Shown here: in pieces, positions 8,550 to 33,142 of the stretch
Layout of the letters: each line of letters opens with the position of its first letter
How positions within the stretch are numbered: position 1 is the stretch's first letter
From: Methyloversatilis thermotolerans
GTDB lineage: Bacteria > Pseudomonadota > Gammaproteobacteria > Burkholderiales > Rhodocyclaceae
Length of the DNA stretch: 64,000 bases
Assembly (NCBI RefSeq): GCF_000372885.1
Contig: NZ_KB889967.1
Span: 3,733,430 to 3,797,429 of the forward strand
Direction of reading: 5' to 3'
The notes under the pieces: generated by a model
Seen by the model: the letters and a program-made list of their open reading frames with translations, nothing else
Databases searched by the model: none
What the model was told of the DNA's origin: nothing
Made by a program: the position numbers and the translations under genes

Positions 8550-9392
8550 CCCCCCCGGCTCCGCTCGTTGCTTGGGCGAGCTTTTGTGGGAGCGGCCTCT
8601 GGCCACGATGCGGCGGGTGCAGGCCGCCGGCTTCGTTCGGGGATGGGATCGCGAGCTGCGCTCGCTCCTACGACCCCCCGGCTCTGGTCGCGGTCAGGGC
8701 GTGCTCATGGACAACTCCGACCCCATTCGTGGTTCGGGCGCGGTCATGGGCAACTCCCGCTCCGCTCGTTGCTTGGGCGAGCTTTTGTGGGAGCGGCCTC
8801 TGGCCGCGGGCTTCGTTCGGGGGTGGGGTCGCGAGCTGCGCTCGCTCCTAGGACCCCCGGCTCTGGTTGCGGTCAGGGCGTGCTCATGGACAACTCCGAC
8901 CCCATTCGTGGTCGGGCGCGATCATGGGCGACTCCCGCTCCGCTCGGTGCTTGGGCGAGCTTTTGTGGGAGCGGCCTCTGGCCGCGATGCGGCGTGTGCA
9001 GGCCGCGGGCTTCGTTCGGGGGTGGGGTCGCGAGCTGCGCTCGCTCCTACGACCCCCCGGCTCTGGTTGCGGTCAGGGCGTGCTCATGGACAACTCCGAC
9101 CCCATTCGTGGTTCGGGCGCGGTCATGGGCAACTCCTGCTCCGCTCGTTGCTTTGGGGAGCCTTTGTGGGAGCGGCCTCTGGCCGCGATGCGGCTTATGC
9201 AGGCCGCGGGCTTCATTCGGGGATGGGATCGTGAGCTGCGCTCGCTCCTACGACCCCCCGGCTCTGGTTGCGGTCAGGGCGTGCTCATGGACAACTCCGA
9301 CCCCATTCGTGGTCGGGCGCGATCATGGGCAACTCCCGCTCCGCTCGGTGCTTGGGCGAGCTTTTGTGGGAGTGGCCTCTGGCCGCGATGCA
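8550..9392. repeat. Tandem array of about 200-bp REP-containing units between the two xoxF genes
   Basis: The palindrome TGTGGGAGCGGCCTCTGGCC recurs at 8585, 8786, 8964, 9165 and 9365 (with small changes), giving spacings of 201, 178, 201 and 200 bp. Each unit also holds an inverted REP-like stem around TCGCGAGCTGCGCTCGCTCC and a conserved filler with GCTCATGGACAACTCCGACC. The second unit has lost about 23 bp. Paired palindromes in opposite orientation make this a BIME-type array. Long open frames through it are by-products of the periodicity. Confidence 0.9.
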
Positions 9393-30589: not shown

Positions 30590-31787
30590 TTCGCGAAGTC
30601 CGGGCCGCCGGCTTCGTTCGAAGCTGCATCGCGGGCAAGCCCGCTCCCACCAAACCCCGGTTCCGATGGCGGGCTGAGCGAGTTCTTGTGGGAGCGGCCT
30701 CTGGCGGCGATAGTGCTGATGCAGGCCGCGGGCTTCGTTCGGAGCTGCATCGCGGGCAAGCCCCCTCCCACCAAACCCCGGTTCCGATGGCGGGCTGAGC
30801 GAGTTCTTGTGGGAGCGGCCTCTGGCCGCGATAGTGCTGATGCTGGCCGCCGGCTTCGTTCGGAGCTGCATCGCGGGCAAGCTCCCTCCCACCAACCCCC
30901 GGCTCCGATGGCGGTCTGAGCGAGTTCTTGTGGGAGCGGCCTCTGGCCGCGATAGTGCTGATGCAGGCCGCCGGCTCCGTTCGAGGCCGCAATCGCGGGC
31001 AAGCCTGCTCCCACCAACCCCCGGCTCCGATGGCGATCTGAGCGAGTTCTTGTGGGAGCGGCCTCTGGCCGCGATAGTGCTGATGCAGGCCGCCGGCTTC
31101 GTTCCAGGCTGCATCGCGGGCAAGCCCGCTCCCACCAACCCCCGGCTCCGATGGCGGTCTGAGCGAGTTTTTATGGGAGCGGCCTCTGGCCGCGACAGTG
31201 CTGATGCAGGCCGCCGGCTCCGTTCGAGGCCGCAATCGCGGGCAAGCCCGCTCCCACCAAACCCCGGTTCCGATGGCGATCTGAGCGAGTTCTTGTGGGA
31301 GCGGCCTCTGGCCGCGATAGTGCTGATGCAGGCCGCGGGCTTTGTTCGAAGCTGCATCGCGGGCAAGCCCCCTCCCACCAAACCCCGGTTCCGATGGCGG
31401 GCTGAGCGAGTTCTTGTGGGAGCGGCCTCTGGCCGCGATAGTGCTGATGCAGGCCGCCGGCTCCGTTCGAGGCCGCAATCGCGGGCAAGCCCGCTCCCAC
31501 CAAACCCCGGTTCCGATGGCGGGCTGAGCGAGTTCTTGTGGGAGCGGCCTCTGGCCGCGATAGTGCTGATGCTGGCCGCCGGCTTCGTTCCAGGCTGCAT
31601 CGCGGGCAAGCCCCCTCCCACCAACCCCCTGCTCCGATGGCGGTCTGAGCGAGTTTTTATGGGAGCGGCCTCTGGCCGCGACAGTGCTGATGCAGGCCGC
31701 CGGCTCCGTTCGAGGCCGCAATCGCGGGCAAGCCCGCTCCCACCAAACCCCGGTTCCGATGGCGATCTGAGCGAGTTCTTGTGGGAG
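30590..31787. repeat. REP/BIME array, ten units of 121-122 bp
   Basis: Forward palindromes TGTGGGAGCGGCCTCTGGCC start at 30687, 30808, 30929, 31051, 31172, 31294, 31415, 31537, 31658 and 31780, an even 121-122 bp spacing. Each unit also holds an inverted palindrome ATCGCGGGCAAGCCCGCTCC. Two unit types alternate irregularly (CGTTCGAGGCCGCAATCG or CGTTCGAAGCTGCATCG). The forward palindrome is the same as in the 8.5-9.4 kb array. No RAYT transposase is in the window. Confidence 0.92.
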
Positions 31788-31789
31788 AT

Positions 31790-32748
31790 TCTATGTGTTC
31801 CGGCGCAAGCGTTTTCGTGTTGTTTCGGGACATAGTCGGCGGCGTTCTTCATCACAGAGAAGGCAACGCGAGCGAGTTTTCTTGCCAGCGCAACCAGCGC
31901 CTGGGTGCGGCTGAATCCGCGCTGGAGCATGCGCTGGTAGAAACGGCTGCCAGGTCGTGGATCTGCTGGCCGCCATGGCGCGGCGTTGTAGAGCAGGCGG
32001 CGCATCTCCGAGTCCCCCTTCTTGCTCAGCGCACGGCGTCCGGTTCTCTTGCCCGAATCGCGCACGCTGACGTCCATGCCAAGGAAGGCGATGAAGGCGT
32101 CCGCACCGCTGAAGGCAGCGCGATGGAACACCGCGCACAGGCCGGCGGCGGTGAGCGCGCCAACGCCTTCGATCTTCAGGATGCGCCGGTACGGTTCAGT
32201 CCATCCGCTCTCGTTGATCAGCGAGGCGATGCGCTGTTCGAACCGTTTGATCAAGGCGGTGAGCCGCGCGAGAGCCACACGCACTTCGCGAGCAAAGCCG
32301 GGCAGATCTTCCATGCTCTGACGGATGCGACCCAGGCTGCGTACCACGGTTGCGCGACGACGCAGCAGGCTGCGCAGTTCGGTGACCGCGGGCGCCGGGA
32401 GCGAGAACGGGCGCAGATCCCGTGCCCTCGTGCGCGAGGTAGCGGGCGATCAGGCGTGCGTCGTGCCGATCCGTCTTGGCGCGCTGGGCCCACGGTGTCG
32501 CGGGTACCTGGACAGCTTGAAGCCGTCGATCAGAAACACCTGATGTCCGGCCTTGATGAGCAACTTGACGAGCGTGCAGTGATAGCTGCCGGTCGATTCG
32601 CAGAGGCGATGCGCTGGGGCACCTCTGGGTAGCGTGGCGGCAACCAGCCGCGGATGGCCGCAGCGGTGTTGTCGACGCGCGGTTACCGCGCGGCGGGGTG
32701 CTCGGCGATGTCCAGCCAGTGCTTGGAGACGTCGATGCCAAAGCACAC
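31790..32748 (-). pseudogene. IS110-family transposase (frameshifted)
   Basis: The pieces lie in several minus-strand frames. The N-terminal part reads VCFGIDVSKHWLDIAEH, then ESTGSYHCTLVKLLIKAGHQ, then RAKTDRHDARLIARYLAHEG, the RuvC-like domain. The C-terminal Transposase_20 part (LKIEGVGALTAAGL, DAFIAFLGMDVSVRDSGKRT) is one clean frame from about 32347 down. Frameshifts in the first half and the lack of a proper stop codon mean it is inactive now. Confidence 0.8.
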
Positions 32749-32999
32749 TACCTCGTTTCTGACTTGTCACGATGGGATCCCTCCCGACTAAGGGTTCAAA
32801 AGGCTTGTCGGGATTCACCACAGCACTGGCTTGCAGGGTATGGACGGTACCGCGGTCACGGTCCGATGGATTCCTGATCGGTGCTTGGGGTGAGGGCGGG
32901 ACATCTCTCCCACTGTCTGTACGTGCTTGCCGTCAGATCCGGACTGGGTCCCTCCGCCCGACAAGCTATTCCTACGCTTGCCACGGCAGAACATACAAG
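32749..32999 (-). ncRNA. Candidate bridge RNA region of the IS110 element
   Basis: This 250-bp non-coding end lies upstream of the transposase, where IS110-type elements encode their bridge RNA. On the minus strand it contains GTGGGAG (32907-32913) beside a small stem GGGA/TCCC. GTGGGAG is complementary to CTCCCAC, which is the right target half including the CT core of this very insertion. This is what a right target guide should look like. A 7-base match can arise by chance, and I could not identify the left guide or the donor loop. Confidence 0.4.
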
Positions 33000-33142
33000 C
33001 GGCCTCTGGCCGCGATAGTGGCTGATGCAGGCCGCCGGCTCCGTTCGAGGCCGCAATCGCGGGCAAGCCCGCTCCCACCAAATCCCACTCCGTTCCCGGT
33101 TCGGGCGAGCTGTTGTGGGAGCGGCCTCTGGCCGCGATGCGG
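33000..33142. repeat. End of the REP array beyond the IS110 element
   Basis: The interrupted unit continues with CGGCCTCTGGCCGCGATAG, then the inverted palindrome, and ends with a final forward REP at about 33114-33140, two bases from the dmmC stop. The last palindrome may act as a 3' end stabiliser or weak terminator for the dmm transcript. Confidence 0.8.

What the first reader, a model, noticed from the sequence alone, without database searches (positions are those of the whole stretch)
31788..32999. IS110-family element in a REP palindrome, with a CT core and a possible bridge RNA target guide
The insertion splits an otherwise intact array unit at GTGGGAG^CGGCC. Both junctions carry CT on the minus strand, as in IS621-type recombination. 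The non-coding end contains GTGGGAG, complementary to the right target half CTCCCAC including the core. IS110 relatives that target REP sequences are known, but here a decayed copy keeps target, core and a candidate guide together. The array offers at least ten more identical targets.
Basis: partly seen in the sequence, partly recalled or inferred. Interest (0 to 1): 0.78.

Follow-up and report, generated by a model that had tools for sequence, protein, structure and literature searches.

The report
RNA-guided jumping gene targeting repeat DNA
A bacterial jumping gene appears to carry a guide RNA that sends it into one spot of a short repeated DNA palindrome, and in related bacteria part of that guide differs in step with the host's own version of the palindrome.

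Summary
In detail: an IS110 element lies at 31788-32999 (minus strand) inside a REP palindrome, with a CT core and GTGGGAG in its non-coding end. The host is a Methyloversatilis. Its genome holds 7 full-length copies and 3 cut by runs of 100 N; the 9 left and 9 right ends that can be read all sit in REPs at the same point. The window copy is frameshifted, perhaps partly an assembly fault; four other copies have an open transposase.

The non-coding end is a bridge RNA by sequence evidence. In 29 elements both target guides match their own targets far better than swapped ones, and four donor-guide bases match the donor end in 29 of 29.

The mechanism is known (IS621; ISPpu9/ISPpu10 enter REPs), so this is a new member of a known kind. 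Not seen in the papers searched: within the genus the right guide is fixed while the left guide fits an abundant REP stem of each host, and one genome holds two left-guide alleles, each copy in a fitting REP (3 copies). The left guide's core positions read CT in only 11 of 29. No activity was tested.

The parts
31788..32999 (-). IS110 element, 1212 bp counting one copy of the CT core; left end (LE) at 32999, right end (RE) at 31788
   Evidence: Ends shared with six other full-length copies and with three copies cut by runs of N
31791..32770 (-). frameshifted transposase gene (GTG start at 32770-32768, former stop TAG at 31793-31791)
   Evidence: Open 321-aa frame in copies L011-L014 (L011 translated); window copy has 12 insertion events; a window C-terminal piece hits PF02371, the intact copy hits PF01548 and PF02371
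32894..32959 (-). [quoted passage not shown] outer stem GGGC(GGA)GGGAC / GTCCCGCCC, apical hairpin TCTG/CAGA
   Evidence: Anatomy read from the alignment of 29 elements; not the minimum-energy fold of the single sequence
32940..32947 (-). left target guide (LTG) CCAGTCCG; core positions GA at 32938-32939
   Evidence: LTG-target covariation, 29 elements, 0 of 20000 permutations reach it; position checked
32907..32913 (-). right target guide (RTG) GTGGGAG, reverse complement of CTCCCAC
   Evidence: RTG-target covariation, 29 elements, 0 of 20000 permutations reach it; position checked
32823..32884 (-). donor-binding loop stem-loop (outer helix GCAC/GTGC)
   Evidence: 7 pairs in 2 helices, 96.5% of cells paired, 31 cells changed on both sides
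32868..32874 (-). left donor guide GGAATCC
   Evidence: Four LDG bases equal the four donor bases before the core in 29 of 29 elements, including GAAC, GGAA and GGAT variants
32830..32842 (-). right donor guide region CATACCCTGCAAG (discontinuous complement of CTTGTATG)
   Evidence: CAAG at this place in 29 of 29; discontinuous pairing inferred by analogy with IS621
31781..31787 (+). right half of the split REP (GTGGGAG; minus strand CTCCCAC) with one core copy
33000..33015 (+). left half of the split REP (CGGCCTCTGGCCGCGA)
30593..33138 (.). host array of about 121-bp units with two REPs in opposite orientation; the target reservoir
   Evidence: Direct-repeat families D1-D4

Best explanation
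The feature is a copy of an IS110-family element (IS110 group, IS621-like, with the non-coding RNA upstream of the transposase). Shown by sequence: the left end has the anatomy of a bridge RNA with a target loop (LTG CCAGUCCG, RTG GUGGGAG) and a donor loop (LDG GGAAUCC). Each readable copy in the host genome lies in a REP at [C/G]CCG-CT-CCCAC, and guides and targets co-vary across relatives. Inferred from IS621: the excised circle (RE-CT-LE junction) and the REP are held together by the transposase-RNA complex, and strands are exchanged at CT. As assembled, the window copy no longer encodes an intact transposase, so it could move only in trans, using protein from intact copies. Within the genus the RTG is fixed as the REP tail is fixed, while the LTG differs with the REP stem of the host.
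For: Own genome: 7 full-length copies and 3 cut by N; 9 of 9 LE and 9 of 9 RE junctions in REPs at the same CT. Relatives: 29 elements with both ends found; LTG match 6.28 of 8 versus 3.73 +/- 0.20 permuted, RTG 6.31 of 7 versus 4.07 +/- 0.23, each reached by 0 of 20000; subset of 11 with right target CTCCCAC, LTG 5.55 versus 4.50 +/- 0.24, 0 of 20000. A register-free version, each target against the whole LE, also gives 0 of 20000 for both. Donor guide equals donor end in 29 of 29, 0 of 100000 permutations. Compensatory changes in the donor loop. Protein: NF033542 'IS110 family RNA-guided transposase' 182 bits over cut-off 140; best solved relative IS621, E 6.6e-23. Host tracking: REP census in 13 genus genomes against LTG alleles in the 6 that hold the element.
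Against: No expression or transposition data. In the window copy the LTG matches the actual left target at only 5 of 8 positions (5 of the 6 nearest the core), and its core positions read GA where CT would pair. LTG fits are 2 of 8 in L204, 3 of 8 in L197, and 5 of 8 in seven rows (L009, L059, L072, L090, L092, L198, L201); RTG fits are 4 of 7 in L159 and L163 and 5 of 7 in L073, L075, L076, L089 and L161. One own-genome copy (L013) has CCCCCG on the left and fits the LTG poorly. One of 9 right targets in M. universalis (L057) is CTCCTAC, and one of 9 left targets in G005 (L062) lacks the usual REP stem, though both keep most of the guide match. Single-sequence folding is only modestly stable (z -2.15; 6 of 200 shuffles fold as well) and pairs part of the RTG in another hairpin. 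In the donor-loop test the number of further pair types (7) is below the shuffles (8.3). No Rfam family matches. The permutation tests do not correct for kinship.
Confidence: 0.93

Rival explanations
1. The transposase recognises the REP hairpin itself and the guide-like sequences are coincidental or have another role (for example 5'-UTR regulation, as reported for ISPpu9).
For: The readable host-genome targets are palindromes. ISPpu9 has a structured 5'-UTR and two sRNAs that regulate tnp (PMC8450116, abstract and outline seen). The RTG pairs within a hairpin in the single-sequence fold.
Against: Relatives with the same RNA architecture insert in targets without the CTCCCAC tail and their guides match those targets (for example L088, L093, L205 on both sides; L073, L159, L089 on the left side). 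Two element types in one genome (G182, 3 copies) lie in two different REP stems according to LTG.
Confidence: 0.04
2. Guide-target similarity reflects common descent of old insertions, not functional matching.
For: Copies within a genome share guides and some relatives are close, so the 29 elements are not independent.
Against: Ten insertions at different loci in the host genome. The LTG allele conflicts with whole-element similarity: L068 (AGCTCG) is 97.2% identical to L011 (AGTCCG), and L069 (AGTCCG) is 95.9% identical to L070 (AGCTCG). Many unrelated guide-target pairs.
Confidence: 0.02
3. The window copy did not jump into this unit; it was carried into the array by homologous recombination or unit amplification among REP arrays.
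For: The site lies in a tandem array; 23-nt identical sites occur 9 times in the window.
Against: Other copies lie at other loci at the same nucleotide of the REP, which array recombination alone does not explain. For this single copy the two histories cannot be separated.
Confidence: 0.15

Closest known systems
ISPpu9 and ISPpu10 (Pseudomonas putida KT2440)
   Same: Insert at one fixed point of the host REP with a 2-bp direct repeat, all copies in REPs (PMC1525189, abstract and Results read). A predicted bridge RNA and guides of ISPpu10 are drawn in PMC11208160 (legend passage seen, figure not held).
   Different: Different genus; no sequence comparison with ISPpu9 or ISPpu10 was run here. 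Here the left guide is compared across hosts with different REP stems.
IS621 (Escherichia coli)
   Same: DEDD/Tnp transposase (E 6.6e-23 to PDB 8wt6), CT core, LE-encoded two-loop RNA with LTG/RTG and LDG/RDG, REP target (PMC11208160, passages and section 6).
   Different: Right guide complementarity is 7 nt here (4 in IS621, with a possible 7-nt extension, PMC11208160 passages). LTG core positions read CT in only 11 of 29 elements.
ISPa11 and other IS1111-type elements with seekRNA
   Same: RNA-guided, REP target in P. aeruginosa (PMC11187229, abstract and passages seen).
   Different: The IS1111 type usually carries its non-coding region downstream of tnp; here it is upstream, as in the IS110 type.
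ISEc11 / ISXne4 (IS1111 type)
   Same: Published case of natural re-direction, guide and target changed together (PMC11187229, passage).
   Different: There the targets share only 3 of 13 bp; here the change inside one genus is confined to the left guide and fits host REP types.

Membership tests
IS110 family (IS110 group, IS621-like) | DEDD RuvC-like domain plus Transposase_20 domain | tested here: met
   Intact copy: PF01548 E 5.4e-22, PF02371 E 2.7e-17; NF033542 182 bits, cut-off 140
IS110 family (IS110 group, IS621-like) | Catalytic D-E-D-D and C-terminal serine | tested here: met
   D13, E56, D98, D101 and S236 invariant in the 7 aligned transposases. S236 aligns with the serine at chain position 243 of 8wt6, which I take to be S241 of PMC11208158; the DEDD positions are recalled
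IS110 family (IS110 group, IS621-like) | Long non-coding region upstream of tnp encoding a two-loop RNA | tested here: met
   227 nt including the core before GTG in copy L011; donor-loop covariation; target-loop anatomy from alignment; expression not tested
IS110 family (IS110 group, IS621-like) | Guides in the RNA match target and donor | tested here: met
IS110 family (IS110 group, IS621-like) | CT core at both ends | tested here: met
   9 of 9 LE and 9 of 9 RE in the host genome
IS110 family (IS110 group, IS621-like) | Both left and right target guides pair with the core (seen in IS621; not family-defining) | tested here: not met
   RTG ends in AG in 29 of 29, but LTG core reads CT in 11 of 29 and GA in the window copy
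IS110 family (IS110 group, IS621-like) | RNA-guided recombination in the laboratory | not testable with these tools
   needs expression and a plasmid or genome insertion assay
REP-specific IS (ISPpu9/ISPpu10 type) | All copies split a REP at one point | tested here: met
   10 of 10 loci with at least one readable end in the host genome
REP-specific IS (ISPpu9/ISPpu10 type) | Sequence relationship to ISPpu9/ISPpu10 | not tested
   their sequences were not fetched

The most novel reading that the evidence does not exclude
In this clade the bridge RNA address has two parts that evolve differently: a constant right guide fixed on the conserved REP tail (CTCCCAC) and a left guide that repeatedly switches to follow a REP stem family of the host, so that in one genome two element types partition two REP families (seen in 3 copies). 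The left guide has also lost the need to pair with the core. An RNA-guided transposon would thus co-evolve with a RAYT-driven repeat family of its host.
Probability: 0.6. Interest if true: 0.66.

Novelty: new member of a known kind. Interest (0 to 1): 0.5.

Why it matters
It gives a natural retargeting series for a bridge RNA: closely related elements (92.7-99.7% DNA identity in the close group) whose left-guide changes coincide with target changes, some inside one genome. That makes two questions directly testable: how few guide changes retarget an IS110 element in nature, and whether the left guide must pair with the core. It also ties an RNA-guided transposon to host REP/RAYT evolution, because REPs supply hundreds of target sites (326 exact sites of two types in this genome).

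Tried and rejected
Rfam scans of the window gave nothing at gathering threshold and 3 weak unrelated matches at E up to 1 over the window and L011. The RNAalifold consensus of 29 left ends recovers only part of the target loop, so I named the helices from the alignment; the 4-bp helix search has free choice of window and is descriptive only. A strict pattern scan of 72 loci found the loop pattern in 3 (in L087 the match lay inside the gene); six more (L088-L093) were then read directly and L094-L156 were not used. The first anchored test used a wrong register for several rows and was repeated with registers -1, 0 and +1. The first donor test had a scoring bug and a wrong site for L204; it was redone. 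Rows left out of the 29 although printed: L165 (right end not held), L162 and L091 (left target not held), L094 (ends not seen), and further copies with the same guides (other copies of G000, G118, G005, G182 and G623). A tblastn against plasmids gave IS110 transposases all below 60% identity. Of two Y1 transposase genes in the host genome, neither has CTCCCAC in the fetched flanks of about 1.5-2 kb, so a RAYT for these REPs was not shown in this genome. I first took L018 for a deletion derivative; one search showed a run of 100 N inside it, and the same beside L016 and L017, so none of the three is known to be truncated. The 32-nt match at G000:C1:3967932 (L019) was set aside as a short isolated match (about 100 nt around it seen).

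Full report
WHAT IS THERE. The element occupies 31788-32999 on the minus strand. The REP tail GTGGGAG ends at 31787 and the other REP half, CGGCCTCTGGCCGCGA, starts at 33000. Read along the transposase strand the site is ...CCAGAGGCCG-CT-[TGTATGTTC ... GAACACATAGAAT]-CT-CCCACAAG... The window copy is 1212 bp with one core; five of the other six full-length copies are 1195-1198 bp and one is 1248 bp. The surrounding array has units of about 121 bp.

SAME-GENOME COPIES. The host genome (4.16 Mb, 4 contigs) has seven full-length copies and three (L016, L017, L018) that are cut by runs of 100 N, so their true extent is unknown (in one search, 40 of 134 first-look candidates were scored, so diverged copies could be missed). 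The 9 left ends and 9 right ends that can be read lie in a REP at the same CT. Left targets are AGGCCG (4 of 9), AGCCCG (4 of 9) and one CCCCCG (L013); right targets are CTCCCAC in 9 of 9. Four copies (L011-L014) have an open 321-aa transposase with the DEDD_Tnp_IS110 and Transposase_20 domains (one copy tested), scoring as 'IS110 family RNA-guided transposase'; the two solved relatives found are IS621 and ISCro4. The window copy has 12 insertion events and no deletions against the majority sequence and as assembled cannot encode an intact protein; L015 has 35 insertion events and no deletions. With gaps of N inside three copies, an assembly fault in this repeat is a fair alternative to decay.

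THE ORGANISM.

THE GUIDES. GTGGGAG at 32907-32913 is the right target guide: it is the reverse complement of CTCCCAC, core included. In genus relatives the right guide is unchanged, and in the target loop the differences fall in and next to the left guide, apart from one hairpin-loop base in L069. The M. discipulorum copy and two of three G182 copies have AGCTCG and sit in AGCTCG REPs; the third G182 copy has AGTCCG and sits in an AGGCCG REP; seven M. universalis left ends have GCGCCG and all seven sit in GGCGCCG. In G005 nine copies have CGCCG-CT and all nine left targets end in CGCCG-CT, although bases further left differ between sites. Right targets in the genus are CTCCCAC in 31 of 32 examined right ends; the exception is L057 (CTCCTAC). 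A further, broken G005 copy seen was not examined.

REP CENSUS. Exact counts of six stem bases plus CTCCCAC in 13 genus genomes, both strands: AGCCCG 159 and AGGCCG 167 in the host, none of the other three types; AGGCCG 93 and AGCTCG 65 in G182; AGGCCG 85 and AGCTCG 39 in G226; GCGCCG 115 in G118; CCGCCG 252 in G005 and 253 in G243; AGGCCG 99 and AGCTCG 48 in G152, which has no element at E up to 1e-50. Each element's left guide thus fits an abundant REP type of its own host, though in G226, and for two of three G182 copies, it is the second most abundant of the five types counted. Only these five types were counted; G182 has others. Elements occur in 6 of 7 genomes with more than 100 such REPs and in 0 of 6 with fewer than 30 (one-sided Fisher 0.004, not corrected for kinship). 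The host's left guide AGUCCG matches both of its REP types at five of six positions; the odd U could wobble-pair with one and mismatches the other (inference).

RELATIVES BEYOND THE GENUS. From family, order and class searches (10 of 249, 7 of 399 and 9 of 369 genomes with hits at the thresholds used; the host and some genomes counted more than once) and one scan of genome contigs (80 loci kept), I took 29 elements, the window's included, with both ends found by donor-end patterns. Anchored guides against own targets: LTG 6.28 of 8 versus 3.73 +/- 0.20 when targets are swapped; RTG 6.31 of 7 versus 4.07 +/- 0.23; 0 of 20000 permutations each. The register-free test agrees. Within the 11 elements with a CTCCCAC right target the left guide still follows the left target (5.55 versus 4.50 +/- 0.24, 0 of 20000). 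The weakest left fits are L204 (2 of 8) and L197 (3 of 8); L201's 5 of 8 omits the bases next to the core; the weakest right fits are L159 and L163 (4 of 7). Donor loop: the four bases before the core equal four bases of the left donor guide in 29 of 29, through GAAT (23), GAAC (4), GGAA (1) and GGAT (1). Two donor-loop helices have 96.5% of cells paired and 31 cells changed on both sides, against 84.8% and 9.4 in shuffles; slid controls pair 18.8-49.5% of cells; the count of further pair types (7) is lower than in shuffles (8.3). The permutations do not correct for kinship.

GUIDE SWITCHING. Whole-element identities: L068 (AGCTCG) is 97.2% identical to L011 (AGTCCG) but 94.5% to L070 (AGCTCG); L069 (AGTCCG) is 95.9% identical to L070 but 94.1% to L011. 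The allele therefore does not follow overall similarity, which suggests more than one change or exchange; no tree was built. In this close group of eight copies the LTG has 3 of 8 columns variable, the RTG 0 of 7, the stretch between them 1 of 27, the rest of the RNA 12 of 134 and the transposase 116 of 966.

CORE PAIRING. The right guide ends in AG in 29 of 29. The left guide's core positions read CT in only 11 of 29 and GA in the window's lineage (a few rows have an uncertain register). In IS621 pairing with both core strands was strongly preferred (PMC11208160, passages). That paper kept only CT core guides in its guide-motif analysis, so other core guides may already be in those data.

REPs AND RAYTs. 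Y1-type transposase genes (PF01797) are found in 11 of 13 genus genomes. Five that I compared with REP positions have REPs on both sides: G182 at 3922420 (AGCTCG and AGGTCG), G226 C71 (AGCTCG and others), G226 C23 (AGGCCG), G118 at 2181479 (GCGCCG), G005 at 415159 (CCGCCG); G182 at 781189 has REP-like sites too. This supports calling the repeats REPs. In the host genome neither hit has such a site in the fetched flanks.

MECHANISM AND STATUS. Most likely the element moves as a circle through bridge-RNA-guided recombination at CT, as in IS621. Shown: anatomy, target uniformity, guide-target and guide-donor covariation. Inferred: RNA expression, circle formation, strand exchange, and movement of the window copy only in trans.

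LITERATURE. PMC1525189 (abstract, Results) reports REP-specific insertion of ISPpu9, ISPpu10 and ISPa11. PMC11208160 (section 6, section 43 part 1, and passages) and PMC11208158 (passages) describe the bridge RNA. PMC11187229 (abstract and passages) describes seekRNA and a natural re-direction. PMC8450116 (abstract and outline) describes ISPpu9 regulation. Searches for bridge RNA with IS110, IS110 with REP, ISPpu10, seekRNA, Methyloversatilis with insertion sequence, bridge RNA with REP elements, RAYT with IS110, and retargeting (only listings seen for the other papers) showed no report of guides following host REP families; the library lacks preprints and most subscription journals.

Noticed in passing
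L015 (G000:C1:124800-130400) and window 31788-32999: Copies with many 1-3 nt insertions, often duplications of adjacent bases, and no deletions (35 events in L015, 12 in the window copy), while long open frames flank L015. Possibly unpolished long-read errors in a repeat rather than decay.
   Followed up: partly
L016, L017, L018 (host genome) and L057, L058 (G118): Runs of 100 N lie inside or beside element copies, so the assemblies are gapped at this repeat and copy counts are minimal.
   Followed up: partly
window 31791-31800 and 32990-32997, and several relatives: Short subterminal inverted repeat: TATGTTC at LE and GAACATA at RE in the host's intact copies (interrupted in the window RE by a 2-nt duplication), TATGGT and ACCATA in relatives such as L159, L161 and L163; the two ends seem to change together.
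   Followed up: no
G182 and G226 (L211, L213, L214, L215): Two Y1 transposase genes per genome beside different REP types: one beside AGCTCG REPs in each genome, the other beside AGGCCG (G226) or AAGACCG (G182) sites, so two RAYT-REP pairs may coexist.
   Followed up: partly
window 8586-9178: Four more AGGCCGCTCCCAC sites on the minus strand, a second smaller REP cluster in the window.
   Followed up: no
G152: Genus member with about 150 matching REP sites but no element at E up to 1e-50.
   Followed up: no
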